Source of the DNA: a virus
Virus record (IMG/VR): IMGVR_UViG_3300032285_001771
Location: 1 to 64,000 of that record
Reading direction: 5' to 3' (one strand)
Length of the DNA: 64,000 nt
This document shows, piece by piece, positions 5,268 to 29,810 of the stretch; positions within the stretch are counted from its first letter, which is position 1; the number at the start of each line of letters is the position of its first letter. The notes under the pieces were generated by a model. It had not been told where the DNA came from and made no database searches. It worked only from the letters and a program-made list of their open reading frames with translations. The position numbers and the translations under genes are program-made.

Positions 5268-6475
5268 TCTACAGCCCCACAACATCAAAACGTGCGGGAT
5301 GGAATGAAACTCGTTTAAATCATATTAGCAAGTGGAATAACGATTCTGGTATTTTCATATACTTAGAACATGATCTTGTCTTATCAAATTTAGAGTTAGC
5401 AGATGCTTTTAATCAAGAGCATTGGGATAAGATCAATTTCGATCCTAATAGTAAATTGTTAATTAGTTTTTCGGGCGATTACGTAAATGCATATGACCTT
5501 GAACGATTCGATAAAGATCTAACAGCAAATAATGTAGACAGGAGCAAGGTTTGGTTCCTTGCTATGGATCCACTATTTCAAAAGTTTGTACAAGATAGAT
5601 TAAACATACCGAAAGAAAATGTTGGATATTTTAACTATCTGCTGTCTAATGTAGATGTTCCTATGTATAACACAGACAGTACCAAATTTAGATTTAGTAT
5701 GCTAAGTCGTTGTTATAAAGAATGGCGATTAGATTTTTATCTAAGACTACTTTCAAAGCCATGTGACATTCTTAGTAAAACAATATATAGTTTCCATAAT
5801 TACGATCCTTACAACACCGCTGAAAAAACAATATCAATTAACAAAGTATTAGATGATTCTGACTCGCTTGGTTTCAACGATAGCAAAATTACTAATTGGA
5901 TCAAGGCATTACCTTACGATCTACCAAACACTATAGTTCAAAACAAATGGTCTAAAGTTACATACGACTCAATACAAGCATCTGCAATTAACATCTGCAT
6001 TGAAAGTCATTACGATCCTTTTATATACTGGAAAGAATTAAATGGAACTAACCCAGATGAGTTAAGCCCTGCGTTTGCTACAGAAAAAATTTATAAATCT
6101 ATAGCTTGTTCAAGACCGTTTATCGTAGTATCAACTCCGGGTTTTCTGAGAGGATTAAAAGAACTAGGATTTAAAACTTTTAATGGATACATCAATGAAG
6201 AGTATGATAACATATTAGACAACGATCTTCGTATGCAAGCTATTGTTGAGGAAATAGAAAGATTAAGTTTATTATCAGAAGACGATTTTGAACAAATGAT
6301 ACAAGGGTGTCGAGAAGCAGTTAAACACAATTACAAATTATTAACAGTAATGAAATCAACAAGTAACTTGGATGATAATTGGAAATGGATCAAACCTTAT
6401 ATTGCAGAACAACCACTTACAACAAGATTATATAATTTTTTCAATATGATATACACAAAAAGAGGCAAACAGTGA
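5264..6475 (+). CDS. Glycosyltransferase-like protein (paralogue A)
   Basis: A 403-residue protein that shares a C-terminal block with the product of 7787-9031. At about 270-320 it reads ATEKIYKSIACSRPFI, then a Gly-rich turn and LKELGFKTFNGY..EEYD. The TEK(I/F)-x-x-x-IAC-x-(R/H)-PF(I) segment resembles the donor-sugar loop of GT-B fucosyltransferase-like enzymes, which is the basis for the call. The N-terminal 250 residues are not recognised. No signal or membrane segment is visible. It opens a rightward string of tightly overlapping genes that runs to 18.8 kb. Translation starts at a GAGGG site inside a hairpin. Confidence 0.45.
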   Translation: MIYSPTTSKRAGWNETRLNHISKWNNDSGIFIYLEHDLVLSNLELADAFNQEHWDKINFDPNSKLLISFSGDYVNAYDLERFDKDLTANNVDRSKVWFLAMDPLFQKFVQDRLNIPKENVGYFNYLLSNVDVPMYNTDSTKFRFSMLSRCYKEWRLDFYLRLLSKPCDILSKTIYSFHNYDPYNTAEKTISINKVLDDSDSLGFNDSKITNWIKALPYDLPNTIVQNKWSKVTYDSIQASAINICIESHYDPFIYWKELNGTNPDELSPAFATEKIYKSIACSRPFIVVSTPGFLRGLKELGFKTFNGYINEEYDNILDNDLRMQAIVEEIERLSLLSEDDFEQMIQGCREAVKHNYKLLTVMKSTSNLDDNWKWIKPYIAEQPLTTRLYNFFNMIYTKRGKQ

Positions 6476-7812
6476 GCGAAGTTGATAGAATACGCAAAGT
6501 TATTCCGATTGTAAACGACATAAGCCCTACATTCTGCTTGGCTAAGTGGCATCATACAACTATATATCTACAGAGTGGACAAACACATAGTTGTTACCAT
6601 CCACGTCCTCACGACATTCCCTTAGATCTAGCAGATCCTAGTGTACTACACAATACCCCGCAGAAGAAATCAGAAAGACAACAAATGCTAGACGGTAAAA
6701 AACCTAGTGGCTGTCAGTACTGTTGGAACATTGAATCACTAGAAGGTAATCATATTAGTGATAGACACGAGCGCAATGCCAGCATCTACACAGAAGAACG
6801 ACTAGGAGCTATAAAAGCCGATCCTCTAGCTCCTGTTAATCCAGAATATATTGAGATTAGCTTTGGCAACGAGTGTAACTTTAAGTGCGGATACTGCCAC
6901 CCTAAACATTCTAGTGCCTATTACAAAGAGATCAAAGACTTTGGTCCTTACACAATGGTTAAGAATCATCGCAACGATGTTGATTACTTTAAAATATACG
7001 AAGAAGAAACTAATCCTTATGTAGAAGCATGGTGGAGATGGTGGCCAGAAGTTAGTAAGACGCTAAACATTCTACGTATTACAGGAGGAGAGCCTTTACT
7101 ACAACAATCAACATGGAGACTACTAGATGACTTATATAATAATCCTAAACCTAATCTTGAGCTTAATCTTAATACTAACCTCGGAGTTAAGCCAATCCTT
7201 ATTGAAAGGCTTGTGGAGAAAGTTAACAAGTTATTAAAGGAAAACAAGATTAAACATTTTAAGTTGTTTACCAGTATTGATACATGGGGAGCACCTGCAG
7301 AGTATATACGAACTGGACTGGATCTTGCTGTATGGGAAAAGAACTTAGATACATACCTAACCAAAACTAAACAACCAATCACTTTTATGTGTACCTTTAA
7401 CATATTGACCGTTACGAACTTTAGTTCTTTGTTGGTTAAGATATTAGAATGGCGCAAGAAGTACAACAGTTGGTTTAGCCGTAAAGAACGTATACGCTTT
7501 GATACACCTTATCTAAAAGAACCTCTACAATACGATATGAATCTATTGCCTAAAGAACACTTTATTAAGTATATGGAAATATCTTTAGAGTATATGCGCA
7601 GAAATAAATTTTCAGAACTAGAGCGCGAAAAATTTAGTCGCGTTGTTGAGTATATGAGAACTACAAATTATGATGAAAATAAACTTGCTGAAGGTCGCAG
7701 GGATTTTTATAACTGGTTTACTGAATACGACAAAAGACGTAACACCTCGTTTGAAGCAACGTTTCCAGAACTTACAAAATTCTATCATGACTGCGCGGCC
7801 TCCACCTCCTAA
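6472..7812 (+). CDS. Radical SAM enzyme with N-terminal twitch/SPASM-like cysteines
   Basis: 446 residues, GTG start overlapping the previous stop (GTGA) with AGAGG upstream. The cluster motif C135-x3-C139-x2-C142 (CNFKCGYC) is followed by TGGEPLL at about 203-209, the SAM-binding GGE motif. Before the barrel lie C22, C41 and C81-x2-C84, the layout of proteins annotated as twitch-domain radical SAM, with the auxiliary-cluster cysteines N-terminal. Such enzymes form a 5'-deoxyadenosyl radical for C-H chemistry on peptides or sugars. The gene is sandwiched between two paralogous glycosyltransferase-like genes, which hints at a carbohydrate substrate. Confidence 0.85.
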   Translation: MSEVDRIRKVIPIVNDISPTFCLAKWHHTTIYLQSGQTHSCYHPRPHDIPLDLADPSVLHNTPQKKSERQQMLDGKKPSGCQYCWNIESLEGNHISDRHERNASIYTEERLGAIKADPLAPVNPEYIEISFGNECNFKCGYCHPKHSSAYYKEIKDFGPYTMVKNHRNDVDYFKIYEEETNPYVEAWWRWWPEVSKTLNILRITGGEPLLQQSTWRLLDDLYNNPKPNLELNLNTNLGVKPILIERLVEKVNKLLKENKIKHFKLFTSIDTWGAPAEYIRTGLDLAVWEKNLDTYLTKTKQPITFMCTFNILTVTNFSSLLVKILEWRKKYNSWFSRKERIRFDTPYLKEPLQYDMNLLPKEHFIKYMEISLEYMRRNKFSELEREKFSRVVEYMRTTNYDENKLAEGRRDFYNWFTEYDKRRNTSFEATFPELTKFYHDCAASTS

Positions 7813-9905: not shown

Positions 9906-10633
9906 AAATAGCAGTTTTAATTGTTGGCGAGTTAAGAACGTTTCCTTATTGTCGCAAGACAATGAGCTTTCTAAAACAACCACCCGGTACAGGAGTTGAT
10001 GTTGATGTATATTTCCATACGTGGGAAATAACTAAAATGCACAATCCGCCAATAGGTCGCCATTTAAATCCTAGGCCTTTAAGATTAGCTAGACAAGTTA
10101 CCGAAGAAGAAATACATAGTCTTCTTGGTAGACCAGCTACTGTAAAAGTGCATCCTGTATTAGATGACAAAGATGGTTTTCTTATTATGCGTAAAGGTTG
10201 GCTAATGGGCCTTGAAATGATAGAAGAATCTGGAATTGAGTATGACTTTGTTTACGTAATGCGTCCTGACTTGTTTTACAGGGGGCCTGTTGCTTGGTTC
10301 ATGCCATCCGGATATGAACGATACCAAAATGCTGTAGGATTCCTTCCGATACATCCTCCAGATGCTAAACTGATAGCTGATTGTGATTTTTTCTCTACAT
10401 ACGATAACATTAAAAAATTACTGTGCGAAGACGTATTAGAACTAGATCAAAAAAATGGAAGCATACACACTATTTGGTATGACTATGTTATGAGTAAAGG
10501 ACTAGAATGTACTACGCTTCCATTCTTTCATACAGAGCCACATATCATAGCAAGATTTCCTATGACTGCTGATAGTACATGGAAAGAAGTAGAGACGTTG
10601 TATTGGAAACTATTCCACGAAAGGCCAATATGA
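9902..10633 (+). CDS. Glycosyltransferase-like protein (MKIAVLIVGELR type)
   Basis: 243 residues. It opens with the Rossmann-like strand MKIAVLIVGELRTFP and carries YVMRPDLFYRG at about 118-128, resembling the R-x-D segment of capsule/LPS glycosyltransferases of the WavE type. The N-terminal GELR phrase is typical of uncharacterised surface-glycan genes that respond to sugar-nucleotide donors. There are no transmembrane helices. It overlaps both neighbours by four bases (ATGA), so it is probably made in step with the SGNH protein and the HAD-nucleotidyltransferase. The family call is from motif similarity only. Confidence 0.5.
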   Translation: MKIAVLIVGELRTFPYCRKTMSFLKQPPGTGVDVDVYFHTWEITKMHNPPIGRHLNPRPLRLARQVTEEEIHSLLGRPATVKVHPVLDDKDGFLIMRKGWLMGLEMIEESGIEYDFVYVMRPDLFYRGPVAWFMPSGYERYQNAVGFLPIHPPDAKLIADCDFFSTYDNIKKLLCEDVLELDQKNGSIHTIWYDYVMSKGLECTTLPFFHTEPHIIARFPMTADSTWKEVETLYWKLFHERPI

Positions 10634-12000
10634 ACAAGTTAATTATATTTGACCTAGACGGAGTTCTAATCGAAAGCAGAGAACTGCATTTTTGTGCGTT
10701 GAATGTTGCGCTAAACAGAGTTAGTCCGCAGTTTGTTATTACTACAGAAGAACATCTTAGCACATACGACGGCCTAACCACTACTCGTAAATTAGAGTTG
10801 ATTTCCGAATACAAAGGACTTGATCGTAAGTTTTTTAATCAAGTATGGGAAGACAAGCAAACAGCTACTTTTAAATTGATTAAAGAATTTCCTAAAAATA
10901 ATAAACTGCGGGGAATGTTTGCAAACATAAACTCGCAAGGTATTAAAATTGCTGTAGCAAGCAATAGTATTAGGGAAACAATCAAATTAGCATTATTGAG
11001 TACTGGTGTTATGGAATTTGTAGACTATTATGTTTCAAATGAAGATGTTAGTAGGACAAAGCCATATCCTGAAATGTATTGGAAATGTATGACTGCTATG
11101 AATGCATTGCCTAAGACCACTGTGATCATAGAAGATAGTCATATAGGGCGTCAAGGCGCAATAGATTCCGGAGCTCATTTGATTCCAGTAAAAAATAGTA
11201 ACGATCTAACATCTGATAAGGTTCAAGAAGCGATAGATATAGTTAATGGTGTAAGCACCAAAAAGATTCCTTGGAGAAATAATAAAATGAATGTACTAAT
11301 TCCAATGGCCGGTGCAGGCAGTAGATTTGCACAAGCAGGATACACATTTCCTAAACCATTAATCGAAGTCAATGGCAAACCTATGATACAGGTAGTTGTT
11401 GAAAATTTAAACATAGAAGCACACTATATTTTTCTAGTACAAAAAGAACATTATGAAAAGTACAATTTAAAACAGTTACTAGGGCTAATTGCTCCAGGTT
11501 GTGACATTGTGCAGGTAGACGGTATTACAGATGGTGCCGCTCGTACTACCTTATTGGCCAAAGAATATATCAATAACAATGAACCGTTACTTATGGCTAA
11601 CAGCGATCAGTTTGTTGATTGGAATAGCAACGAAACACTATATAGTTTCACAGCAGATGAGATTGATGGCGGCATTGTTACATTTAAAGCAACACATCCT
11701 AAATGGTCATTTGCTCGAGTTGGTACTGACGGATTCGTGCAAGAGGTTGCAGAAAAGAAACCAATCAGCGACGATGCTACTGTTGGGATCTATTATTGGA
11801 AGAAGGGCAGTGACTATGTTAAGTATGCTGAACAAATGATAGAAAAAGACATACGCACTAACAATGAATTTTATGTTTGCCCTGTGTTTAATGAAGCAAT
11901 TGGCGACAATAAAAAGATTAAAATTAAACAAGTTCCACGTATGTGGGGCATCGGTACTCCTGAAGATCTAGAATATTTTTTAAATCACTACAAAGAATAA
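10630..12000 (+). CDS. HAD phosphatase fused to sugar nucleotidyltransferase
   Basis: 456 residues starting at ATG 10630; an upstream in-frame ATG lies inside the previous gene. Residues 1-215 are a HAD hydrolase of the phosphoglucomutase/phosphatase subfamily, with D8-L-D10-G-V, the ASNS motif II, TKPYPEMY with its Lys, and IIEDS motif III/IV acids. Residues 220-456 form a nucleotidyltransferase starting MNVLIPMAGAGSRF, with FPKPLIEVNGKPMI containing the sugar-phosphate site Lys. The internal Met220 (nt 11287) has a GGAG 10 bases upstream, so a free nucleotidyltransferase may also be made. Likely role: produce an NDP-sugar for the surrounding transferases. Confidence 0.85.
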   Translation: MNKLIIFDLDGVLIESRELHFCALNVALNRVSPQFVITTEEHLSTYDGLTTTRKLELISEYKGLDRKFFNQVWEDKQTATFKLIKEFPKNNKLRGMFANINSQGIKIAVASNSIRETIKLALLSTGVMEFVDYYVSNEDVSRTKPYPEMYWKCMTAMNALPKTTVIIEDSHIGRQGAIDSGAHLIPVKNSNDLTSDKVQEAIDIVNGVSTKKIPWRNNKMNVLIPMAGAGSRFAQAGYTFPKPLIEVNGKPMIQVVVENLNIEAHYIFLVQKEHYEKYNLKQLLGLIAPGCDIVQVDGITDGAARTTLLAKEYINNNEPLLMANSDQFVDWNSNETLYSFTADEIDGGIVTFKATHPKWSFARVGTDGFVQEVAEKKPISDDATVGIYYWKKGSDYVKYAEQMIEKDIRTNNEFYVCPVFNEAIGDNKKIKIKQVPRMWGIGTPEDLEYFLNHYKE

Positions 12001-12963
12001 ATGATTCCATCGTCCATTCCTTTTGATAAGATAATCAAATTTGGCCAGCAAACAATGTTAGATAGACCATTGTTTAATGTCAGCTGGATTTTGGGCAGGT
12101 TTTGCAATTATAAATGTAGTTACTGTTGGCCATATGCTAGAGCAGATGTTCCTGATCATCAAACATTAGAAACCTATAAACGAGTAGTAGATGAAATCAA
12201 ACGTCAAGCTAGGGCGAATGGGTTTACTGAATTTCATTGGAGTTTCAGCGGTGGCGAACCAACTGCATACAAACAATTACCAGAATTGATAAAGCACTTA
12301 GATGAACTTGAAAGTCCTTATCAAAGTGTCCACATGACTACTAATTTAAGCCCAGGATCTAAATGGTGGAAGAGTTGGTGCGATAATACATCACTACTAC
12401 AACGGCGCAGTATCACAGCCAGCTTTCACGCAGAATTTGCCAAGGAGCAAGAGTTTGGAGACAAATGTTTACAACTCATGCACGAACTTGTACATGTTAC
12501 AGTTAACCAAGTAATGGTGCCCGACGTGTTTTATGAAACACTGGAACGCTGTGAACGTCTACGTAGTCGTGGAATTAATGTAACACTTAAACCGCAAAGC
12601 AATGATACTGCTACTGCTATTGTAGATGGTTATACTCCTGATATGGTTAAGATCATGCAAGATGATTTTGAGCAACAAGAAGGATTCCAGATACGCCTAA
12701 CAGATGGTACTGAAAACTATTTCATAGATCAGGCAGAGAGATTTAATGCATTGAGGTTTAACCAATTTAATAACTGGACTTGCAATAGTGGGTATCAAAG
12801 TGTTATAATAAAAGGTGCTGAGGTTAAAAGAGCATATAGTTGTAAAGAAGAAAGTCTAGGAACAATAGATAATTTTACTTTGTTTTCTGCTCCTAAACTT
12901 TGTATAACAGATCGATGTGTTAGCTCAGCAGATAGCAAAATACCTAAAGTTAAAAATGTTTAA
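12001..12963 (+). CDS. Radical SAM enzyme
   Basis: 320 residues, with its ATG directly abutting the TAA of the fusion gene. The [4Fe-4S] motif is C35-x3-C39-x2-C42 (CNYKCSYC), followed by WP as in two other enzymes of this cluster, and SGGEPT at about 83-88. C-terminal cysteines (C261, C278, C297, C303) are spaced as in a SPASM/twitch auxiliary-cluster region. It most resembles the products of 17777-18814 and 18794-19696, and the three form a paralogous set (CNYxCxYC). Substrate is unknown. Confidence 0.85.
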   Translation: MIPSSIPFDKIIKFGQQTMLDRPLFNVSWILGRFCNYKCSYCWPYARADVPDHQTLETYKRVVDEIKRQARANGFTEFHWSFSGGEPTAYKQLPELIKHLDELESPYQSVHMTTNLSPGSKWWKSWCDNTSLLQRRSITASFHAEFAKEQEFGDKCLQLMHELVHVTVNQVMVPDVFYETLERCERLRSRGINVTLKPQSNDTATAIVDGYTPDMVKIMQDDFEQQEGFQIRLTDGTENYFIDQAERFNALRFNQFNNWTCNSGYQSVIIKGAEVKRAYSCKEESLGTIDNFTLFSAPKLCITDRCVSSADSKIPKVKNV

Positions 12964-13717
12964 TAATCCATTCGATACAATACCTAGAAGAATTAGGAAT
13001 AACAAATTTTTACAGGTGGACCAGGGATTTGGAGACAAGTGGGCCGGCATGGACACGAAAGAAAGATATGCTGAAAATTTAAAAACTCAACCAGACGATT
13101 GGTATTATAGAAATAATACAGTTCAATACAAGTATAACTCAGATGGTTATAGAACAAAAGAATTTAAAGATGTAGATTGGGAAAATTCTATAGTAATGTT
13201 TGGATGTTCTGTAGTTAATGGAGTTGGAGTAGATGAATGTGATACTGTTCCTAGTCGATTAGAAGAATTACTAGGTACTCCTGTTATTAACATGGGAATA
13301 GGCGGAGGATCGATGTTGCTCAACTTGCATAACTTATCAATATTGCAAGACGGATATCCTACTCCAAAAGGCATAGTTGTGATATGGCCTAGTTATCGAA
13401 GAATAGTTGAATATCATAGATCTAATTTTTATTCTTACGGCGCCTGGGACAGCGAGCCTAATACGCTAATGGATGTGTGGTTTAAAAATAACAATCATGC
13501 GATTGCAAATGCAATGTTTATGAGTAAGATAAGTCGATCGATGTGGAAAGACAAATGTAAGTATCTTGAATATACTTGGTGCCACGACACTTCTAAAATT
13601 CTCAAATGTAAGAAGATTCCTGGAAATTTGGACTGGGCTAGAGACCTAGGACATCCGGGTATAAAAACAAACAAAGCGATTGCAAAATTTATAGAAGAAG
13701 AATTAAAAAATGTATAA
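12956..13717 (+). CDS. SGNH-like hydrolase with GCS block I
   Basis: 253 residues from ATG 12956 (8-base overlap with the radical SAM gene; earlier in-frame Met rejected). The nucleophile elbow is MFGCSVVNG with Ser85, where Cys84 replaces the usual Asp of GDS. A Gly-rich block II (NMGIGGGS) lies at about 114-121. Block V is present as DLGHPG near residue 233, so Asp and His are kept. The first 75 residues are charged and include WYYRNNTVQY, which is not part of the usual fold. Probably an esterase or acyltransferase acting on the same product as the other two SGNH proteins of this region. Confidence 0.6.
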   Translation: MFNNPFDTIPRRIRNNKFLQVDQGFGDKWAGMDTKERYAENLKTQPDDWYYRNNTVQYKYNSDGYRTKEFKDVDWENSIVMFGCSVVNGVGVDECDTVPSRLEELLGTPVINMGIGGGSMLLNLHNLSILQDGYPTPKGIVVIWPSYRRIVEYHRSNFYSYGAWDSEPNTLMDVWFKNNNHAIANAMFMSKISRSMWKDKCKYLEYTWCHDTSKILKCKKIPGNLDWARDLGHPGIKTNKAIAKFIEEELKNV

Positions 13718-20490: not shown

Positions 20491-21730
20491 AATCTTTAAA
20501 CTCTATTGTAACATCTGTAAAACTTTGATTTCTTGTGTTATCTAGGGCTTGATTAAACTTCACACAGTCGTCCCACTTATCACTTTGATCTACGGCATTA
20601 ATATAGTTTATATTATCTTGTATCTGTCCTAGCGTATAGGGTAACAGTTCAGGATGTTGTCTAACCATTTTAAATTCTGGCACACGTGATTTAATCGCCT
20701 CTAGTCGCATAATTGCTAATTCCTTTAAAGGCTTTGGCAATACTTGAACACTTAACACTTTAGGATATGCTACTCGGTGTGTATGGAACACAATGCCTAT
20801 GTCATTTAAAAAATATTCAATCATTTTATCTAATATAAGAACATTGCTGACTTGTACAGTAACAGCACCAACAATGCGACTGATATTTGTTATAGTTTGT
20901 ATCTGTTTGATGTTGTTAACAAGTTCGGCCCATGAGGCGTTACCACGTACATATTCATAACTACTACCAATGCCATCGATGCTTACGTTAACAGCTACGC
21001 TCTTAAACTTGGGCCAGTACTCCCATACTGTACGATTGCTCTTGCCCAATATACTTAGATTAGTCGCATACTTGATTTCAATTTGATGCCCGTACGGGGC
21101 AAGCATATCTAAAATCTTATAATGCTGTGGATCCATTAACGGCTCACCACCAGCAAACTCTACACGACGGAAGTATGGCAATAATTTTTCTAAACTTGCC
21201 CACCATTCTGGACTATCTTGAAATTTGTCAAGATGAGGTTTATTTTCTAAGTTGTGTTCTTCTACAATAGCATACATGATATTACCTTCTGCTTTGTAAA
21301 AGTCTTTAACTTCACTCCAATCGTTCCAGCTGGTACTATCCATTGGATGGCACATACGACATTTAAGATTGCACAAGTTGTTTAGTTTAAGTTCCATGGT
21401 AGGAATCTCAAACGGCATAACTTCTAACAATGGTGTGTTAGGATATAGATTAATACGTGCTTCTGGAATCTTACCACTAACGTGTCTTTGACGTAAACTT
21501 TCAACCCCTTGATCCTCTAAACTAAAACACGGTTCGCACTCGGCCGGGCGTTCTCCGTTTAACACTTGTCGACGGATACGTTGCATCGTATCGTTATTCC
21601 AAATATCTTCTAGTGTAGCATCTTGTATAAAACCTACAGGATGGCTACGACAGCAAGCGCAAATGGCTCCATCTTCGCGTGTTGCTAATCCTGTAAATGG
21701 ATGCATACAAAATGTTTTACTTTGATTCAT
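20483..21730 (-). CDS. Twitch-domain radical SAM enzyme
   Basis: 415 residues. N-terminal auxiliary cysteines C8, C24, C26-C27 and C65-x2-C68 precede the barrel motif C120-x3-C124-x2-C127 (CNLKCRMC). AGGEPLM follows at about 194-200 and VSIDGIG near 249. Same architecture as the product of 16362-17780 on the other strand, with which it shares the CNLKC-x-MC core and WPKFKSVAVNVS versus WSQFRKVKVGVS. Its overlaps with both neighbours (8 and 14 bases) indicate an operon. Confidence 0.88.
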   Translation of the reverse strand: MNQSKTFCMHPFTGLATREDGAICACCRSHPVGFIQDATLEDIWNNDTMQRIRRQVLNGERPAECEPCFSLEDQGVESLRQRHVSGKIPEARINLYPNTPLLEVMPFEIPTMELKLNNLCNLKCRMCHPMDSTSWNDWSEVKDFYKAEGNIMYAIVEEHNLENKPHLDKFQDSPEWWASLEKLLPYFRRVEFAGGEPLMDPQHYKILDMLAPYGHQIEIKYATNLSILGKSNRTVWEYWPKFKSVAVNVSIDGIGSSYEYVRGNASWAELVNNIKQIQTITNISRIVGAVTVQVSNVLILDKMIEYFLNDIGIVFHTHRVAYPKVLSVQVLPKPLKELAIMRLEAIKSRVPEFKMVRQHPELLPYTLGQIQDNINYINAVDQSDKWDDCVKFNQALDNTRNQSFTDVTIEFKDYV

Positions 21731-22352
21731 TGACTATCTCGTATAATTTTTTAGCCGCTTCTTTATGTGCTAATGGACCTGGGTGACTATTATCTAAAGC
21801 GATGTCTAATTTATGGTTGATTATACTCTTAGAAGTATAATGTTCTGGCTGGTTAATAAACACTGGCATCTTGTTATACCATTGATGTTGAAAAGCAGAA
21901 AAATGAAGCTGTTTTTCGACTTGTGTTTTCAAATAAGATTCTGCGTGATGTATATACAGTCCTGTCCTAACAGCTAAGTCATAATCGTTGTGTATGTCAA
22001 AATACTGTTTAACGAATTTAGTATCTTTATGCCACGCACTTACTCGAAGATCTGATTCAACACCAAATATGTTTTTATTAAAAATACAATCTCTTAGATT
22101 AAAAGTCCAACCTGCAATTACTACATCGGTCTTTTGAAAACCTTTAAACGTTATAATTTCTTTTAAGATCTGAATATTACTAGACCCGCATACTGCCTTA
22201 TTGATTACTTCAAGTTCTAACATGTCTCCTAACAGTTGGGGCCATGCAAATTTGCTAGGATTAGGACCAGGCCAATTCTTTTCAGGAATGTGGCAATCAT
22301 CTAATCCGTGCCCAAACGTAAAGCTATCCCCAAATGTTATTATTCTAGGCAT
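21717..22352 (-). CDS. SGNH/GDSL hydrolase, intact triad
   Basis: 211 residues with all catalytic landmarks: ITFGDSFTFG with Ser10, NKAVCGSSN as block II/III at about 51-59, and LDNSHPG with Asp and His near 187-190. Unlike the two other SGNH proteins of the region, no catalytic residue is replaced. No signal peptide, so a cytoplasmic esterase or acyltransferase on a biosynthetic intermediate is most likely. Overlaps the PLP enzyme gene upstream by 8 bases. Confidence 0.78.
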   Translation of the reverse strand: MPRIITFGDSFTFGHGLDDCHIPEKNWPGPNPSKFAWPQLLGDMLELEVINKAVCGSSNIQILKEIITFKGFQKTDVVIAGWTFNLRDCIFNKNIFGVESDLRVSAWHKDTKFVKQYFDIHNDYDLAVRTGLYIHHAESYLKTQVEKQLHFSAFQHQWYNKMPVFINQPEHYTSKSIINHKLDIALDNSHPGPLAHKEAAKKLYEIVNESK

Positions 22353-23190
22353 TTTCTAAATATCTTATTAACGGACTTACGCCAACTGGAATACCGTCAC
22401 GTAACGCAAGATAAATGCTGTTGGTCGGTGTAAGACTAAAATCTTTACAAACTTTGAGATAGTTTTCACCGTGCTTATTCCAAAGATAATCTGTTGGTAA
22501 ATTTCTAACAAAATGCAACCCAATCATAGCCGGAGCTCTAAGGTTCATATTGAAGTCGTTCATTATTGTAACACTATCTGGGTGTGTTTGTCTAGTCCAG
22601 CGTAAACCAATTCTGTTCCATCCTAACCCTAGTCCTTTGCTCAAACTGATAGCGACTGACTTAATAGATGGATGTGATAAATCAAAGTTAATTCCGCGAC
22701 AGCAAGTAAGCCAAGCGCCGTCCACATGTACACTAATTCCTTTGTCTTGCGCTTCATTTAGTATATCCTCCATTTGAGTATGTACTGCACCTGTGCTAGG
22801 AAATGGCATTGCTATTATTAAAGGAACTCCTTCTTTAAGCAAACCGGGGCGAGTACCCCAATTACCTAATCTATCATGATACCTATAATCGCCGACTATC
22901 ACTTGTGGTTGGCCCTGCATATAAAGGTTGTCAATAAACTGTGTGCAACCGTTCATAATATCTACACGATTAAAACTATCAAATCCTGTAATGGTGTTTA
23001 CCTTGCTATTAAACAACCACGATGTCATTTCTCTTTTAAAATTAGTGTAAACATTATCACTAATATCTTTATCTATTTTACCACTTAGTACATCCTGTAT
23101 CAACTGTTCGATATGATTATCAACAAGAGGTTGTGGCCTATCTATTTCTATGTAGGTTTCTGAATAGGTGGGAGCAATCTTATAACGCAT
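22345..23190 (-). CDS. PLP-dependent (fold type I) aminotransferase-like enzyme, short
   Basis: 281 residues. VHVDGAW at 154-160 supplies the Asp that pairs with the PLP pyridine nitrogen, and ISLSKGLGLG at 181-190 contains the Schiff-base Lys185. This is the arrangement of class I aminotransferases and decarboxylases. The protein is about 100 residues shorter than typical enzymes, with little of the C-terminal small domain left. It is first in its leftward operon. A role in making an amino sugar, or in supplying an amino donor for the surrounding enzymes, is plausible. Confidence 0.65.
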   Translation of the reverse strand: MRYKIAPTYSETYIEIDRPQPLVDNHIEQLIQDVLSGKIDKDISDNVYTNFKREMTSWLFNSKVNTITGFDSFNRVDIMNGCTQFIDNLYMQGQPQVIVGDYRYHDRLGNWGTRPGLLKEGVPLIIAMPFPSTGAVHTQMEDILNEAQDKGISVHVDGAWLTCCRGINFDLSHPSIKSVAISLSKGLGLGWNRIGLRWTRQTHPDSVTIMNDFNMNLRAPAMIGLHFVRNLPTDYLWNKHGENYLKVCKDFSLTPTNSIYLALRDGIPVGVSPLIRYLENA

Positions 23191-23219: not shown

Positions 23220-23227
23220 CATAAATA
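23220..23227 (+). promoter_or_regulatory. Late-promoter-like octamer CATAAATA
   Basis: CATAAATA differs from the T4 late-promoter core TATAAATA at one base and lies in the 42-base divergent gap. It is only 5 bases from the ATG at 23233, so a transcript from it would be nearly leaderless. Function is therefore doubtful. Confidence 0.3.
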
Positions 23228-23232
23228 TTTCC

Positions 23233-23898
23233 ATGCTAACCCCAACTACATACTCAGTTGACACAAGTCTATTGCAACAAGCCAGTGATTGTATTCCAAA
23301 TACAGGAATGAAAAATACAATTAACCAGCCAACTGGTAATTTCTTTTATGATCCTTGGGTATTGAAGGACGAATACAAAGATACAATTTGGGAAGCTCTG
23401 TACGATTCTTTGCCTGTGGTCAAAGGAGAAGCAAGGGTAATTATTTTAGAGCCTGGTCAGTGCTATACATCACATGCAGACATAGATGATAGATATCATC
23501 TAAACATATCTGGAAGTAAAAGTTATCTTGTTAATCTAGAAACAAATCAAATGCATTTTTTAGATCAGAACGGTATATGGTACGATATGAATGCCGGACA
23601 AACACACACAGCCGCCAACTTTGGTAGAACTGCAAGAGCGCAGTTAGTAATTAGAAAGCTATTGTTGAACAACTATATAAAAGACCCTGTGCCAATCACC
23701 ATACATACTACACTAACCAATCTTGACCAAGCTCGATTCATTTTTGATAATACCATTAGTCCTTGGCTTAACACAGCTAATAAAAAAGGATACATTGCTA
23801 ATTTTTCCTATACTAACAATCAAGCGACCTTTGACATTGAAGAATCTATGCTTTATGTTTTAAAAAATATATTACCAGAAGAATTTACTTTAGAATGA
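23233..23898 (+). CDS. Aspartyl/asparaginyl-hydroxylase-like 2OG oxygenase
   Basis: 221 residues. H81-A-D83 with distal H125 (AGQTHTAAN) and Arg135 form the iron and 2-oxoglutarate sites. LEPGQCYTSHADIDDRYHLNIS-type spacing, with a short loop between the HxD and a YLVNLE strand, is typical of the Asp/Asn beta-hydroxylase cupin branch. The C-terminal 70 residues are an extra region of unknown role. It begins the rightward operon with the B12-type radical SAM gene and overlaps it by ATGA. Confidence 0.7.
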   Translation: MLTPTTYSVDTSLLQQASDCIPNTGMKNTINQPTGNFFYDPWVLKDEYKDTIWEALYDSLPVVKGEARVIILEPGQCYTSHADIDDRYHLNISGSKSYLVNLETNQMHFLDQNGIWYDMNAGQTHTAANFGRTARAQLVIRKLLLNNYIKDPVPITIHTTLTNLDQARFIFDNTISPWLNTANKKGYIANFSYTNNQATFDIEESMLYVLKNILPEEFTLE

Positions 23899-25439
23899 AC
23901 CACGCATTATTCTTTTCATTAACAGGCAAACGCTGGGAGCGTATTCTATGGACACATCGCGTTGCTACCTTCTTACGAATGAATGACTGGGATGCTGAGG
24001 TTGTAGACTTTACAGCTTTTTGGAAACTAGAAGAACTACAAGAATTTGTACGTAGCAGAACAACAAACAAAACAGTAATGTTCTGTTTTGGAACAGCGTT
24101 CTTAAATCCGTGGAGTCCGTACTTAAATGATTTTATTGCGTGGCTTAAACAGGAATATCCTAAGATTCCTATTGTTGTAGGAGGGAATAATGCCTTAACG
24201 ACCCCAGCTAATCATGTAGACTATTGGGTAGACAGCTACGGAGAAAACGCCATACTCGCGGTATGTAAACATTTGTTAGGAACACTCGGAGCACCTTTAA
24301 TGCGCGACCCAACTTACTTTGGTGTTAAGAGTGTTGTCCGTGGACTGCATCATTATCCAAGTGCGCCATTAGACAGTTACTTGGTGGATTACGAAGCTCG
24401 TGACTTTATGATGCCTTGGGAATGTCCGCAAATTGAAACAGCACGTGGTTGTATGTTTAGTTGTTCTTACTGTAACTTCCCCTTGCTTGGACAAAGTAAA
24501 GACGTTAGTGTTAGCAAAGAAGAATTCAAACGTCAAATGCAAACAGGCTATGAAAAGTGGGGCATTAAGAACTGGCGTGTAATGGACGAGACATTTAACG
24601 ACCGTCCCGAAAAATTACAGAAGTATGCAGATGCAGTAGATGAACTAGGATACAATCCTTGGATATGTGGATTTGCTCGCGGCGACCTAGTCGTTAAACA
24701 TAGAGAACATTGGGACACTTATATCAGATTAGGATTTCTCGGACATAGCATGGGTATTGAAACATTCAATCGAGAAGCAGGTAAACTTGTACGCAAGGGC
24801 ATGGATCCTGGTCTACTACAACTAGGCCTATTAGATTTTGAAGCCTATACAGATATTCATGCACCGCAACGATATAGAGCAAATATACAAATGATATGTG
24901 GAATACCAGGAGAAACTAAAGAGTCTTGGAATCAATCACTAGAATGGTTAAACAAATATTGGACTAGACAAAGTGCATCCGCACACATACTAGAAGTACC
25001 AGATTATGACGAATCTCTAACTAATCAAAGTCGTTTTACTAAAGAGCTTGTTAGCAATGGTTTGATTAAATTAGAAGCTAGACAAAATCCTGGATACGAA
25101 GTTTCAAAAGACAGTAATGGAAACGTTGTGTTTAAATCTACTACTCCAAGAGGTGGTGGAGTTGGGAGTACTAGGAATGATATCGTTATTTGGAAACATA
25201 ATACAATGGATTGGTACCAAGCCGAATCTCTAGTACAAGAATTTTATACTGACGACGGTTTCAAAGGACTGCGAGGATGCAATCCATTCTTATCTGACAG
25301 ATTGTTTGCTTACTATGAAACAAACAGTTACGAAGAAGTGTATAATCATAAGGTAACTGATGTAGACACATCTGATCAGAAATTTAAAGAACAAATACAA
25401 TCATACATTGATAAAAAATTAAATTGGAGTAAGCAATGA
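23895..25439 (+). CDS. B12-binding-type radical SAM enzyme
   Basis: 514 residues. The N-terminal 150 residues have the alternating strand-helix pattern of a cobalamin-binding Rossmann domain (IPIVVGGNNA at about 91-100, DYWVDSYGENA at 109-119), but the classical D-x-H-x-x-G is not evident. The barrel follows, with C186-x3-C190-x2-C193 (GCMFSCSYC) and GIPGET near 336-341. Class B radical SAM enzymes methylate unactivated carbons or do other cobalamin-linked chemistry. Whether cobalamin is really bound is an open point. Confidence 0.82.
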   Translation: MNHALFFSLTGKRWERILWTHRVATFLRMNDWDAEVVDFTAFWKLEELQEFVRSRTTNKTVMFCFGTAFLNPWSPYLNDFIAWLKQEYPKIPIVVGGNNALTTPANHVDYWVDSYGENAILAVCKHLLGTLGAPLMRDPTYFGVKSVVRGLHHYPSAPLDSYLVDYEARDFMMPWECPQIETARGCMFSCSYCNFPLLGQSKDVSVSKEEFKRQMQTGYEKWGIKNWRVMDETFNDRPEKLQKYADAVDELGYNPWICGFARGDLVVKHREHWDTYIRLGFLGHSMGIETFNREAGKLVRKGMDPGLLQLGLLDFEAYTDIHAPQRYRANIQMICGIPGETKESWNQSLEWLNKYWTRQSASAHILEVPDYDESLTNQSRFTKELVSNGLIKLEARQNPGYEVSKDSNGNVVFKSTTPRGGGVGSTRNDIVIWKHNTMDWYQAESLVQEFYTDDGFKGLRGCNPFLSDRLFAYYETNSYEEVYNHKVTDVDTSDQKFKEQIQSYIDKKLNWSKQ

Positions 25440-26134
25440 CAGATACAAGTGCATGGGAACGTTACTATAAATTAAATCCCGACGGAAATCCTTGGCCATC
25501 AAACATGTTGTACACTCCAACAGTAAACCCAGAACAAACTATAATGTGTGCTCACTATTGCATCGATCCTGCGTATAGACCTAGAGAAACATTAACAGTT
25601 CCGGAAGATTTAATAGACTGGTTCTTTCAAAGAGACGTTAAATTCTTAAACCAATTGTCGCATCTTAAAACTACACCGATACTTTATGATGTGGACTATA
25701 CTAATAGAAAAATCTTTACAGAATGGAATAAAGAAACACTATCTCAAATACTATTCACACCAGGTAGAAGTCTAGACGATGAGCTACCAGATTGGAAAGA
25801 ACAAATGAAAGATTTCTTTATTTCAACAAAAGTAAATAATTTTTGGAAAGTATCGTTATACCCTAATTGTTTTTTTATCTCAAAAGACAGAGTATTAAAA
25901 ACTATAGACAATTACGGTATTGTTCCTTATGAAGAAAGATTTATGGAAAGAAAAATAATACAGGGTATCATAGGTAAAGATGGTGCATATAGATTCGATC
26001 AGTCAACAGACAACGATGGTGTTATTGATTTTAAGAAATTCTTTGAAATTACAGTAACAAAGCACTTGCCAGAACGCTCGTGGGGAACTACTGTATTTGC
26101 TGATATTTTTAAAGAGGTATTTGATAATGAATGA
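25436..26134 (+). CDS. Degenerate kinase-like protein (family copy 1)
   Basis: 232 residues. The stretch PDWKEQMKDF at about 122-131 followed by LYPNCFFISKDRVLKTIDNYG at roughly 140-160 has the rhythm of a kinase catalytic loop (Asn) and a DFG-like Asp. The same rhythm occurs in the products of 29891-30577 and 36721-37377. Key kinase residues (HRD Asp, glycine-rich loop) are not clear, so this may be a pseudokinase or an unrelated family. Translation is coupled to the radical SAM gene by ATGA. Confidence 0.4.
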   Translation: MTDTSAWERYYKLNPDGNPWPSNMLYTPTVNPEQTIMCAHYCIDPAYRPRETLTVPEDLIDWFFQRDVKFLNQLSHLKTTPILYDVDYTNRKIFTEWNKETLSQILFTPGRSLDDELPDWKEQMKDFFISTKVNNFWKVSLYPNCFFISKDRVLKTIDNYGIVPYEERFMERKIIQGIIGKDGAYRFDQSTDNDGVIDFKKFFEITVTKHLPERSWGTTVFADIFKEVFDNE

Positions 26135-26654
26135 TATTGATTGGGATTCGATCGTTACTTCGCTTATGGATCAAGAAGGGTCTGCTGTAACTACTGATCC
26201 TGCTAGGTGGAATTTAGATAACCCAGGATATAATGAAGTCTTTGGCATTTGGAACAAGGCAAAGTTTAACCCCGGAGCAATCAAATGGATTAATTATTAT
26301 CCTGATAAGCATTACCCTCGAGAGGTTGAAGATAAAGTTGCTAAATCTTTAAATTTAAAACATGTTCATCGATCTTGGATTAGTAGATTGGATCCAGGAT
26401 TTATTGCACCATGGCATTGGGATGGCGATGATAATGAAGAAGAATATTTAAGTCACGGTACTATCATACGATGTACAGTAATCATCAAAAAATTTGCTAT
26501 GGGACATCTGTTTATTTTAAATGACGAATATTATTATAAACAAGAAGAAGGAACTGTAATAGTATGGCCCAATCACAGTGATTGGCATGCTGGAATCAAT
26601 GGCGGACTTGAGCCAAATTTTATGTTACACATTTTAGGATCTTACGGCGAATAA
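26127..26654 (+). CDS. 2OG-Fe(II) oxygenase-like protein
   Basis: 175 residues from ATG 26127; AGAGG lies 11 bases upstream. H97-W-D99 and H154 (SDWHAGINGG) form the presumed iron triad, in a cupin-like layout with IVWPNH before the distal His. It is a diverged relative of the protein encoded on the facing strand (26656-27183): both have a Trp-Pro or Trp-Ser before the distal His region. The two genes converge with one base between their stops. Substrate unknown. Confidence 0.65.
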   Translation: MNDIDWDSIVTSLMDQEGSAVTTDPARWNLDNPGYNEVFGIWNKAKFNPGAIKWINYYPDKHYPREVEDKVAKSLNLKHVHRSWISRLDPGFIAPWHWDGDDNEEEYLSHGTIIRCTVIIKKFAMGHLFILNDEYYYKQEEGTVIVWPNHSDWHAGINGGLEPNFMLHILGSYGE

Positions 26655-26655
26655 T

Positions 26656-27183
26656 TTAATCGTCGTACATTGTTATCTGTAGAGTATACCTAGTATTGTA
26701 ACCTATATTAGCAGGGCCATGTACAGTCATAGGATCACTCCACTCATACATATCTCCTGCTTTGTAATTGGCTATGTACTGGTCATCCCAAACAAATATA
26801 TGCCCGGGCTCCCAATCCTGTAAGAACATTGTATAGCGCACTGGATTTTTAACTTCAGTTAATTGCGGATCAATATGCATCGCCTGAAACTCTCCAGGGT
26901 ACAACATCACAAACCACCAGTTAACATTTGTTCGTTGTTCAGGAACATTTGGTAATGTAAATTTAAAATCCTGCATTTCTTTAGACTTAGGATTTACTTG
27001 ATGAAAGAAGTGTTGATTATTAGAATATCCAGGACGAGCCATTTCTGTAAATCGTTCTAATATAGGATTGCCCTTCCATCTATCTGGTTGCCATACTGGT
27101 GTACGGTCACCTTGGCAAGATGTAAGGTGTTCTATAATTCGTTGCTCTTCAATCCAGGATTTATAGTTACTGATGAATTTCAT
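26656..27183 (-). CDS. 2OG-Fe(II) oxygenase-like protein
   Basis: 175 residues, the same length as the convergent neighbour. H103-I-D105, H155 (TVHGPANIG) and Arg165 match the iron and 2-oxoglutarate sites of small cupin hydroxylases. LYPGEFQAMHIDPQ places the HxD at the end of a strand as expected. Last gene of the leftward operon that starts at 29810, overlapping the methyltransferase gene by ATGA. Confidence 0.7.
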   Translation of the reverse strand: MKFISNYKSWIEEQRIIEHLTSCQGDRTPVWQPDRWKGNPILERFTEMARPGYSNNQHFFHQVNPKSKEMQDFKFTLPNVPEQRTNVNWWFVMLYPGEFQAMHIDPQLTEVKNPVRYTMFLQDWEPGHIFVWDDQYIANYKAGDMYEWSDPMTVHGPANIGYNTRYTLQITMYDD

Positions 27184-27962
27184 GTATTTTCTGGATACCC
27201 TTTTTTCTGCTCAGGATCAGAGTCGTACCATTCTTTCCATGTTAAAGGTAGTTGTTCGTCAGCAATCTTTTTAAATTTTAATATCTTCTTACCTATTGAG
27301 TTATTCTCGGGCTTTCTTTTAACATAGCCATACTCTGCTGGCCACTTCTGTTTTACTCTTTCATTTGTTTCTAAACACAATTGAAAACCTAGCCTTTCAA
27401 AAACTGCATTATAAAATCCAGTGCTGGCAACGGCCCAAATAAATTTGTTTGGATCATCTACATATTCTACAAACGTCTGCTTGTATTCTATAGAGTGTTT
27501 TATGTTTTCTATCAATTGTTGCTGTTCGTCAGACAACTCAGTAGATTTTAAAATTTCTAATAATTCAAATGCGGCATTGTTGATAGGAACTCCTGTTTCT
27601 ATCACTACTAAATTTGTAATCTTAGATAAATTCTGTAAAAGAGTTATAAGATTGTGAACTCCTTCTAGAGTTCGAGTTATAACAACGATATCAAAAAATT
27701 TACTTTCATTAACACAATTACTAATATAATCTTCTAAATCTTCTTGAATAAACGTAAGATCAGGAAAACTTTCTCTTGATCGATCTACCCAAAGTTTATC
27801 AATTTCAACACCTATGTATTCTTTGGCTCCGTTTTCTATACAGTATTTTCCTAGCCATCCTGTTTGACTTCCAAGGTCTAATACTGTTAAATTTTTAATT
27901 TCGTCGGCCGGTAGCCATTCTTGATATACAAGCTGATGATGTTCTTTAAAAAAATTGTTCAT
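27180..27962 (-). CDS. Class I SAM-dependent methyltransferase
   Basis: 260 residues. VLDLGSQTGWLG at about 29-40 is a standard motif I (D-x-G-x-x-x-G), GVEID at 51-55 is motif II with the ribose-binding Glu, and FIQEDLED at 75-82 is motif III. The C-terminal 100 residues are a less conserved, helical extension. The start overlaps the preceding stop by one base (TAATG). It probably methylates a small molecule or glycan made by neighbouring enzymes. Confidence 0.8.
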   Translation of the reverse strand: MNNFFKEHHQLVYQEWLPADEIKNLTVLDLGSQTGWLGKYCIENGAKEYIGVEIDKLWVDRSRESFPDLTFIQEDLEDYISNCVNESKFFDIVVITRTLEGVHNLITLLQNLSKITNLVVIETGVPINNAAFELLEILKSTELSDEQQQLIENIKHSIEYKQTFVEYVDDPNKFIWAVASTGFYNAVFERLGFQLCLETNERVKQKWPAEYGYVKRKPENNSIGKKILKFKKIADEQLPLTWKEWYDSDPEQKKGYPENT

Positions 27963-28762: not shown

Positions 28763-29810
28763 ATTTCCTTTGATACTTTTCAGGTATTGTATCGTATAAT
28801 GGTAAGTTCTTGTTTACTGCGCCATCTCTTAATATAACTTGATGTACTAACGGACTTACTGGCTTGCCGGGCAACATGTCAGCCCACGACTCAGTTTGAT
28901 CTTCTTCTAGATCAATAGTACGAACATCAGGCCATTGAATAATTTTAACTAATATGCCGTTAATTCGCAATGGATAATGCACTCTAATACCATAAGACTG
29001 TTCGTATTTGTATTCCCAGCCTTTGCGCTCACATATTGCTATCACCATGTCAACTAACTCTGACAAGTATATTTTTTCTTCGCCCGGATGTCGTCCTATG
29101 TCCGTACCTACACGCACTCTGTAGTTGTGCGGACTAAGAGTTTTTCCAAACTCTTGTATTTCATCTAAGCAATACTCTAATTGATCTACAGTTTCGAGTG
29201 TATAGCTAACATTCTTGATTGGCATGTTTAACTTCATGCAGTTATCGATGCCTTCCATTTGTTTCTTTCTAACAGTTAGTCCTTGATAGTCTGGATGATT
29301 TAACCCAATCGTCCAAAACAAATTGGGCATATCCGCAAACTGCTTTGCGTAGTCGTAGTCTGAAAGATATACACCGTTCGTTAGTATCATTATACTTCGA
29401 GGTTTACCTGGTAGTGCTTGTATAGCACGACACAATTCAGGTAGGTCTTTTCTAGTTGTAGGTTCAGCACCCATTAGGGCAACAGCGTAGCCGTCGTCCT
29501 CCCATGCTCGAATAATATCAAGTATGCTTTCTATACTAGGATCCTTGCTCATGTTATCTGGAATTTGATAACAATGCGGGCAATTTAAATTACATCTATT
29601 TGTGATGTCTAAGCAATAGGTTTTGTTTGTAGGCCTATCGTATTTGTAATTAATATAAAAATCAGCATTGGGTTCTACTAGGTGTTCGCTTTCCCCATGC
29701 CACACACATCTTTTCCATAACCATATTTGTCCATCTCGTTCAAATTGGATAGCAGGAATGTGTCTGTAACAATGCTCACATAGAGATACTGTGTCTTTTA
29801 ATTTATTCAT
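28746..29810 (-). CDS. Radical SAM enzyme with N-terminal Cys/His metal site (Tes-like)
   Basis: 354 residues. Residues 1-40 carry C11-x2-C14 and C35-x2-H38 in the pattern L-C-x-x-C...I-x-A...dG-x-x-x-x-K-x-C-x-x-HG, which I know from archaeal tetraether-lipid-synthase-like radical SAM enzymes. The barrel motif is C73-x3-C77-x2-C80 (CNLNCPHC), with GAEPT in place of GGEPT at about 114-118. This is the only enzyme of the ten with this N-terminus. The substrate class is not evident; lipid or glycan C-C bond formation can be considered. First gene of its leftward operon. Confidence 0.82.
   Translation of the reverse strand: MNKLKDTVSLCEHCYRHIPAIQFERDGQIWLWKRCVWHGESEHLVEPNADFYINYKYDRPTNKTYCLDITNRCNLNCPHCYQIPDNMSKDPSIESILDIIRAWEDDGYAVALMGAEPTTRKDLPELCRAIQALPGKPRSIMILTNGVYLSDYDYAKQFADMPNLFWTIGLNHPDYQGLTVRKKQMEGIDNCMKLNMPIKNVSYTLETVDQLEYCLDEIQEFGKTLSPHNYRVRVGTDIGRHPGEEKIYLSELVDMVIAICERKGWEYKYEQSYGIRVHYPLRINGILVKIIQWPDVRTIDLEEDQTESWADMLPGKPVSPLVHQVILRDGAVNKNLPLYDTIPEKYQRKYDARD

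What the first reader, a model, noticed from the sequence alone, without database searches (positions are those of the whole stretch)
6472..29810. Ten radical SAM enzymes within 23 kb of a phage genome
Seen: CxxxCxxC enzymes at 6472, 12001, 13710, 15275, 16362, 17777, 18794, 20483, 23895 and 28746, in at least five architectures (N-terminal twitch, short CNYxCxYC, RCPMCPR-SPASM, B12-type, Tes-like). Known: each such enzyme needs an Fe-S cluster and generates carbon radicals. Inference: a multi-step, viral C-H functionalisation pathway, with the surrounding glycosyltransferases, SGNH and PLP enzymes suggesting a glycan or glycolipid as product.
Basis: partly seen in the sequence, partly recalled or inferred. 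Interest (0 to 1): 0.92.

Follow-up and report, generated by a model that had tools for sequence, protein, structure and literature searches.

The report
Phage radical-enzyme island, substrate unknown
A fragment of what is probably a giant T4-like virus of water bacteria carries a tightly packed, evolutionarily conserved block of ten radical-chemistry enzymes together with its own iron-sulfur assembly proteins, most likely to build or decorate an unusual molecule (best guess a sugar-based surface coat); similar enzyme-rich blocks have been noticed in other phages before, but nobody knows what any of them makes.

Summary
Ten intact radical SAM (rSAM) genes lie at 6.5-29.8 kb, in four to five architectures. 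They are not scattered singly in relatives. A core cassette (rS2, rS3/4, a class I methyltransferase, rS5-rS8, a PLP-like enzyme, 2OG-oxygenase-like proteins) keeps its order in about 80 viral contigs. All 24 larger related records examined carry 7-16 rSAMs each, the genes overlap end to end, and dN/dS is 0.02-0.15. A 331-kb relative, largely collinear with the window, has T4-type capsid and terminase genes, so the window is probably a piece of a jumbo T4-like phage. The record also encodes IscU and two A-type carriers, which fits a supply of Fe-S clusters. There is no room for a precursor peptide, so a classical RiPP cassette is unlikely. The glycan/glycolipid product remains inference: a carbamoyltransferase, a HAD-nucleotidyltransferase-like fusion, and sugar, sulfo- and amidino-transfer genes in relatives support it, but most 'glycosyltransferase' and 'SGNH' calls have little family support. 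Multi-rSAM T4-like phages are already known (Campylobacter CP220/CPt10 with 11-12; a 183-kb TARA phage with 12). This is a new, well-defined variant of a known kind, with an unknown product.

The parts
6472..7812 (+). rS1: N-terminal-twitch radical SAM (NF033640)
   Evidence: NF033640 313 bits vs cut-off 170; PF04055 27.2 bits; 74% identical homologue in the island of the 331-kb relative
10579..12000 (+). HAD phosphatase fused to a nucleotidyltransferase-like domain (sugar activation candidate)
   Evidence: PF13419 87.9 bits; PF12804 23.2 bits, below its cut-off
12001..12963 (+). rS2: short radical SAM with SPASM-like C-terminal cysteines
   Evidence: PF04055 51.8 bits; homologues in 61 of 80 loci; alignment A3
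12917..13717 (+). SGNH-like protein (tentative; no family match)
   Evidence: no Pfam match; homologues in 5 of 80 loci
13710..14696 (+). rS3: RCPMCPR radical SAM + SPASM
   Evidence: PF04055 39.4, PF13186 27.9 bits
14686..15282 (+). class I methyltransferase-fold protein (MT), the most conserved non-rSAM gene of the cassette
   Evidence: 77 of 80 loci; AlphaFold pLDDT 88.5; Foldseek E 5e-10 to class I SAM methyltransferases; no Pfam match
15263..16369 (+). rS4: RCPMCPR radical SAM (start probably ATG at 15275)
   Evidence: PF04055 31.9 bits; relatives in 42 contigs
16362..17780 (+). rS5: N-terminal-twitch radical SAM
   Evidence: NF033640 394.9 bits; 101 viral relatives; AlphaFold model with a radical SAM barrel, best Z 9.9
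17777..18814 (+). rS6: short radical SAM with C-terminal cysteines
   Evidence: PF04055 51.4 bits; dN/dS 0.02-0.03
18794..19696 (-). rS7: short radical SAM with SPASM-like C-terminus
   Evidence: PF04055 59.8 bits; at least 585 viral relatives
20483..21730 (-). rS8: N-terminal-twitch radical SAM
   Evidence: NF033640 327 bits; N-terminal SPASM PF13186 34 bits
21717..22352 (-). SGNH/GDSL-like hydrolase (weak)
   Evidence: PF00657 21.1 bits, below cut-off; 20 of 80 loci
22345..23190 (-). PLP-dependent fold-type-I-like enzyme (motif only)
   Evidence: invariant DGAW and SLSKGLGLGWNR motifs in 7 homologues; 48 of 80 loci; no Pfam or PDB family match
23233..23898 (+). Asp/Asn-hydroxylase-like (2OG oxygenase) candidate
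   Evidence: motif reading only; 54 of 80 loci; no Pfam match
23895..25439 (+). rS9: B12-type radical SAM
   Evidence: PF04055 45.7 bits; PhpK model 53.6 bits over residues 21-354, below its cut-off
26097..26654 (+). 2OG-oxygenase-like protein (motif only)
   Evidence: 39 of 80 loci; no Pfam match
26656..27183 (-). 2OG-oxygenase-like protein (motif only); four adjacent copies in one relative
   Evidence: G007 60434-62578; no Pfam match
27180..27962 (-). SAM-dependent methyltransferase
   Evidence: PF13489 31 bits
28746..29810 (-). rS10: HMPTM zinc ribbon + radical SAM (Tes/TrsS-like)
   Evidence: PF23545 47.2 bits, PF04055 56 bits; Tes 75 bits vs cut-off 450
38803..40284 (-). Nol-like (Carbam_trans) carbamoyltransferase
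   Evidence: PF16861 170 and PF02543 141 bits; phrog_1601
50594..50920 (-). A-type Fe-S carrier-like protein (C..CGC ligands intact)
   Evidence: phrog_17776, unnamed family; sequence
50968..51348 (+). IscU scaffold
   Evidence: PF01592 179 bits; solved IscU 2l4x E 9e-66; conserved Cys and LPPVK motif in the sequence
52598..52906 (+). A-type Fe-S carrier
   Evidence: PF01521 55.1 bits

Best explanation
The block is a virus-encoded biosynthetic island in the tail-fibre/host-recognition region of a jumbo T4-like phage. Shown: ten intact, overlapping, purifyingly selected rSAM genes whose core order is conserved across many phages, with phage-encoded IscU and A-type carriers in the same record. 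Inferred: the carriers help load the Fe-S clusters, so the radical enzymes (core plus auxiliary clusters) become active during infection. They act one after another, with the conserved methyltransferase, the PLP-like enzyme and Fe(II)/2OG oxygenases, to oxidise, epimerise, deaminate or C-methylate a common substrate. The most likely substrate is a (nucleotide-)sugar or glycan, because carbamoyl-, sulfo- and amidino-transfer and nucleotide-sugar genes accompany the cassette in different phages, and because several cellular twitch-rSAM homologues sit next to glycosyltransferases and PhyH oxygenases. The decorated glycan would be placed on the host envelope or on the virion and would block superinfection or mask the phage.
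For: Ten rSAMs. 24 of 24 larger related records carry 7-16. Core order conserved: MT next to rS3/4 in 74, rS5-rS6 in 47 and rS6/rS7 convergent in 51 adjacent pairs. 560 adjacent same-strand cassette pairs: median gap -8 bp, none of 120 bp or more. dN/dS 0.02-0.15. IscU in 10 of 25 records, including the 331- and 266-kb ones, and it is a bona fide IscU by sequence. Largely collinear 331-kb relative with Gp23 and terminase, island near tail-fibre-like proteins. Carbamoyltransferase, TauD, Asp_Arg_Hydrox and 2OG families. In relatives: sulfotransferase, UDP-sugar dehydrogenase, epimerase, amidinotransferase related to HsvA, SxtG and inosamine-phosphate amidinotransferase. Cellular N-twitch rSAMs beside GT2/GT4, PhyH and asparagine synthase. 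Pelagimyophage rSAM cassettes lie in the host recognition cluster (PMC7029224).
Against: The putative glycosyltransferases in the window have almost no family support. No rSAM comes near the cut-off of any family of known substrate. The rS5 fold match is equally good to peptide-acting (anSME, CteB) and sugar-acting (DesII) or nucleoside-sugar-acting (BlsE) enzymes. Some cellular homologues lie in a fatty-acid/ACP-type cluster (L243) or with no visible glycan genes (L248). No expression or metabolite data.
Confidence: 0.42

Rival explanations
1. The SPASM/twitch enzymes modify a protein or peptide encoded elsewhere, for example tail-fibre or head proteins (side-chain crosslinks, epimers, beta-hydroxylation).
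For: SPASM/twitch rSAMs in PDB that align best include peptide maturases (anSME, CteB, SkfB, EpeE). The island is near tail-fibre-like proteins. An Asp/Asn hydroxylase family member is present (33221).
Against: No room for a precursor gene inside the cassette; no rSAM passes a RiPP-maturase cut-off; carbamoyltransferase, nucleotidyltransferase, sulfo- and amidino-transfer genes are not needed for it.
Confidence: 0.2
2. The island makes a diffusible small molecule (modified amino acid, nucleoside or guanidino compound) that acts on the host, on competing phages or on defence.
For: An amidinotransferase related to HsvA/SxtG in relatives, PP-loop and PLP-like enzymes, a tryptophan-halogenase-like gene at 51345 (phrog_2928), 2OG enzymes. 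In Paenibacillus (L243) a twitch rSAM sits among ACP-, ligase- and ketosynthase-like ORFs, read from sequence only.
Against: No NRPS/PKS assembly line or exporter was recognised in the window; the viperin model is far below cut-off (55 vs 180 bits).
Confidence: 0.2
3. The genes are independent auxiliary metabolic genes giving the host a fitness gain at low oxygen, as proposed for the Campylobacter phage modules.
For: Authors' proposal for CP220/CPt10 (PMC2853527); Fe-S scaffolds are known AMGs in T4-like phages (PMC5332604).
Against: Conserved order, overlap and joint presence across about 80 contigs argue for one joint function; O2-requiring 2OG oxygenase families are encoded nearby.
Confidence: 0.12
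4. The enzymes hypermodify phage DNA or nucleotides.
For: A QueC-like PP-loop gene at 32540 (PF06508 32.8 bits); rSAM and PLP enzymes occur in known thymidine hypermodification pathways (own knowledge).
Against: No other 7-deazaguanine or HMU-kinase-type genes were recognised in the window; QueE-type matches are far below cut-off.
Confidence: 0.05
5. The record is a mis-binned bacterial genome fragment.
For: No capsid or terminase on this record itself; the rSAM families also occur in Bdellovibrionia MAGs.
Against: Largely collinear with a 331-kb record carrying Gp23, terminase, portal and a phage ssDNA-binding protein; endolysin and tail proteins on the record.
Confidence: 0.01

Closest known systems
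Multi-rSAM modules of Campylobacter T4-like phages CP220/CPt10 (Timms et al. 2010, PMC2853527)
   Same: Virulent T4-like phages with 11-12 rSAM genes, one interchangeable cluster of five, paired with a putative glycine amidinotransferase; 11 PF04055 hits counted here in CPt10. Some relatives of our cassette also carry an amidinotransferase.
   Different: rSAM families are different: rS5 has no match in CPt10 and rS7 only 31% over 91 residues. Our block has N-twitch and short SPASM-like enzymes, a methyltransferase and 2OG-like enzymes in a conserved order.
T4-like environmental viral genomes with Fe-S assembly genes, e.g. TARA_ERS488813_N000010 (PMC5332604)
   Same: 183-kb T4-like genome with an A-type carrier and 12 rSAM genes; other genomes carry IscU.
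   Different: Marine; the cassette structure was not described there. Here IscU plus two A-type carriers accompany a conserved gene order in records up to 331 kb.
Pelagimyophage host recognition cluster (PMC7029224)
   Same: Hypervariable island with glycosyltransferases and rSAM cassettes beside tail fibres.
   Different: That paper reports no rSAM genes in the freshwater (fonsimyophage) genomes; HTVC008M has only one rSAM.
NF033640 N-terminal twitch rSAM subfamily
   Same: rS1, rS5 and rS8 score above the curated cut-off.
   Different: The subfamily name gives no function; the full-length cellular relatives found are only 23-34% identical.

Membership tests
NF033640 twitch-domain rSAM | score above curated cut-off (170 bits) | tested here: met
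   313, 395 and 327 bits for rS1, rS5, rS8
Radical SAM superfamily | PF04055 match with CX3CX2C and GGE motif in an intact ORF | tested here: met
   ten matches, no stops; invariant Cys and GGE in the alignments of rS1, rS2, rS5-rS8
RiPP maturation cassette | precursor peptide gene next to the maturase | tested here: not met
   adjacent cassette genes overlap; no gap of 120 bp or more in 560 pairs
RiPP maturation cassette | rSAM above the cut-off of a known RiPP maturase model | tested here: not met
   all such models far below cut-off
Prokaryotic viperin | NF038283 cut-off of 180 bits | tested here: not met
   best 55.5 bits (rS7) and 55.2 bits (rS6)
Tetraether synthase Tes / TrsS | NF045702 (450) or NF045646 (490) cut-off | tested here: not met
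   rS10 75 and 76 bits
PhpK / B12 rSAM methylase (rS9) | TIGR04479 cut-off of 600 bits | tested here: not met
   53.6 bits over residues 21-354: resembles the class, not a member of the subfamily
Known solved rSAM enzymes (rS5) | clear best structural match to one enzyme | tested here: inconclusive
   anSME, CteB, BlsE, DesII and ChlB tied at Z 9-10, rmsd about 5 A over 209-230 residues
Class I SAM methyltransferase (14686) | Rossmann-type MTase fold | tested here: met
   Foldseek E 5e-10, probability 1.00
IscU scaffold (50968) | PF01592 above cut-off, conserved Cys ligands | tested here: met
   179 bits vs 22; solved IscU E 9e-66
T4-like jumbo phage | Gp23 capsid and T4-type terminase | tested here: inconclusive
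   absent from this fragment, present in the largely collinear 331-kb relative
Glycan biosynthesis locus | verified glycosyltransferases | tested here: inconclusive
   no Pfam match above cut-off; 42419 family only E 0.003 to glycogenin
Glycan biosynthesis locus | a modified glycan in infected cells | not testable with these tools
   needs mass spectrometry

The most novel reading that the evidence does not exclude
A virus-encoded, multi-step, radical-based biosynthetic pathway with its own Fe-S cluster supply that makes a previously unknown C-H-functionalised molecule or glycan, spread widely among jumbo T4-like phages as a conserved cassette of about 15 genes.
Probability: 0.4. Interest if true: 0.88.

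Novelty: new variant of a known kind. Interest (0 to 1): 0.64.

Why it matters
Multi-rSAM phages have been noted since 2010 without any product or substrate being identified in the papers found here. A cassette with a fixed core order, defined partners and hundreds of relatives turns that puzzle into a testable pathway. If it makes a new glycan or metabolite, it is a large virus-encoded source of radical biochemistry and possibly a new way of changing the cell surface or defence during infection. The co-encoded IscU and A-type carriers would give a reason for the Fe-S assembly genes seen in aquatic viromes.

Tried and rejected
RiPP reading: no precursor space, no maturase cut-off met. Viperin, MoaA, QueE and Tes as identities: all far below curated cut-offs. 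Bacterial contamination: rejected by collinearity with a 331-kb phage. Structure of rS5: a good radical SAM barrel but no single closest enzyme; parts modelled poorly (pLDDT under 50 around 50-68 and 164-178). The tied structural rows say nothing about substrate, and families not listed there are not excluded. PLP family and 41030 family against PDB sequences: no relevant match. One search is a meaningless alignment and is not used. Cultured phages hold almost no close relatives.
Full report
OBSERVATION. Family scans give the architectures as stated: N-terminal twitch rSAM (6472, 16362, 20483, all above the NF033640 cut-off), short rSAMs with a SPASM-like C-terminal Cys pattern (12001, 17777, 18794), RCPMCPR with SPASM (13710; 15263 is a sibling in which Pfam does not see SPASM), a B12-type enzyme (23895) and a zinc-ribbon Tes/TrsS-like enzyme (28746). 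I name them rS1 to rS10 in window order.

IS IT A PHAGE? This fragment has no capsid or terminase gene, but it has an endolysin and tail-type proteins. A 331,570-bp viral record (G011) is largely collinear with it: homologues of most genes from 38.8 to 59.4 kb of the window lie in almost the same order at 272-292 kb of G011, at 29-87% identity, with rS1 placed next to the 41030 homologue; the rSAM part (234-272 kb) is rearranged and expanded. G011 carries T4 Gp23, a T4-type terminase, a portal and a phage ssDNA-binding protein. The island of G011 (234-280 kb) is followed by tail-fibre-like and virion proteins and preceded, some 20 kb upstream, by a tail-fibre-like protein. The window is therefore best read as a piece of a jumbo T4-like myovirus; completeness is unknown.

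CONSERVATION. The viral collection holds 101 relatives of rS5, 42 of rS4 and at least 585 of rS7. In 80 contigs retrieved with rS5, relatives of MT (14686) occur in 77, rS7 in 67, rS2 in 61, rS8 in 59, rS6 and rS4 in 55 each, the 23233 protein in 54, rS3 and the PLP-like protein in 48 each. Gene order is kept: MT beside rS3/4 in 74 pairs, rS5-rS6 in 47, rS6 and rS7 convergent in 51, rS7-rS8 in 37. Of 560 adjacent same-strand cassette pairs the median gap is -8 bp and none is 120 bp or more (the ORF caller takes the most upstream start, which exaggerates overlaps, but the window's own genes also overlap by a few bases). 24 larger related records, chosen for size among these hits, carry 7-16 rSAM genes each. 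This sample was drawn through rS5, rS4 and rS7, so it shows that the enzymes travel together, not how common such phages are. Controls, picked by me: P-SSM2, phiKZ and phage G 0; T4, HTVC008M and SynMITS9220M01 1; KVP40 5; Vibrio K566 6; a 735-kb phage 9 (spread over 570 kb); Campylobacter CPt10 11.

FUNCTIONALITY. Pairwise dN/dS against close homologues is 0.02-0.15 for those rSAM genes with close homologues, MT and the PLP-like gene (rS1 and rS10 had none close enough; several dS values are near or beyond saturation, so the ratios are rough). No sign of decay.

FE-S SUPPLY. The record encodes an IscU (50968; E 9e-66 to a solved bacterial IscU; conserved cysteines and LPPVK in the sequence) and two A-type carrier-like proteins (50594, 52598). 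IscU occurs in 10 of 25 records, including the two longest. Nishimura et al. determined 1,352 environmental viral genomes, found IscU in six of them, and noted a T4-like genome with an A-type carrier and 12 rSAM genes (PMC5332604). The records here are related to each other, so this is an association, not independent evidence.

PARTNERS. The most conserved non-rSAM gene (14686) has no Pfam match but a confident class I methyltransferase fold. The PLP reading of 22345 rests on invariant DGAW and SLSKGLGLGWNR motifs. True 2OG families are present elsewhere in the window (2981, 33221, 33865; 55136 weak); the cassette's own 23233, 26097 and 26656 are 2OG-like by motif only. A Nol-like carbamoyltransferase (38803) is well supported. 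Relatives add a sulfotransferase, UDP-sugar dehydrogenase, epimerase, fatty-acid desaturase and a further 2OG oxygenase, and an amidinotransferase related to HsvA, SxtG and inosamine-phosphate amidinotransferase.

CELLULAR HOMOLOGUES. Full-length N-twitch rSAMs in bacteria are mostly in Bdellovibrionia and a few others at 23-34% identity. Neighbours include GT2 and GT4 glycosyltransferases, PhyH oxygenases, a formylglycine-generating-enzyme-like protein and an asparagine synthase, but one Paenibacillus copy lies among fatty-acid/ACP-type genes and one Bdellovibrionales locus (L248) is simply four rSAMs in a row (read from the sequences, not scanned).

STRUCTURE. The rS5 model (pLDDT 78) is a radical SAM barrel; its best structural neighbours, tied at Z 9-10, act on peptides (anSME, CteB, ChlB) and on sugars or nucleoside sugars (DesII, BlsE) alike, so the substrate cannot be read from the fold.

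MECHANISM. Shown: conserved, overlapping, selected rSAM island with Fe-S assembly genes in the same record of a jumbo-type phage. Inferred: Fe-S loading by the phage proteins; sequential radical chemistry on one substrate; substrate most likely a nucleotide-sugar or glycan; role in envelope or virion decoration. The last two steps are the weakest. Precursor-dependent RiPP chemistry is disfavoured; modification of a distant protein or of a small metabolite is not excluded.

PRIOR KNOWLEDGE. Large rSAM sets in phages are not new: CP220 and CPt10 carry 11 and 12, with an interchangeable module of five and an amidinotransferase (PMC2853527); pelagimyophages carry rSAM cassettes in their host recognition cluster (PMC7029224). 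I found no paper describing this cassette or any product; the library holds only open-licence papers. I therefore rate it a new variant of a known kind.

Noticed in passing
window 50594-52906: IscU divergently transcribed from one A-type carrier and close to a second, next to a tryptophan-halogenase-like gene (51345); possibly the Fe-S supply for the island.
   Followed up: partly
window 51345-52601: Tryptophan-halogenase-like flavoprotein (phrog_2928) in a phage genome; substrate unknown.
   Followed up: no
window 25436-26134, 29891-30577, 36721-37377: Three similar proteins of about 220-230 aa that look kinase-like by eye; one or two accompany the rSAM cassette in many relatives; no Pfam match for the first two.
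   Followed up: no
window 2981-3730: Matches PHROG 'DNA endonuclease V' but also Pfam 2OG-FeII_Oxy_3 with 52 bits: the PHROG name is probably wrong.
   Followed up: partly
L248 6358-11066 (Bdellovibrionales CG12 MAG): Four rSAM-like ORFs in a row, of the rS5-, rS2/6/7- and rS1-like types, in a bacterial MAG; possible source or phage remnant.
   Followed up: no
L271 (Vibrio phage K566) 4325-21692: A Vibrio phage genome with a cluster of five rSAM genes near PagP and nicotinamide phosphoribosyltransferase genes; a possible laboratory model.
   Followed up: partly
G007 60434-62578: Four adjacent copies of the 26656 family (2OG-like), a local gene amplification.
   Followed up: no
phage record LR756501 (735 kb): Nine rSAM genes spread over the genome rather than clustered.
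   Followed up: no
Marine virus AG-345-D19 (MH319724, MH319727): Marine single-cell virus records holding a twitch rSAM relative and amidinotransferase relatives.
   Followed up: no
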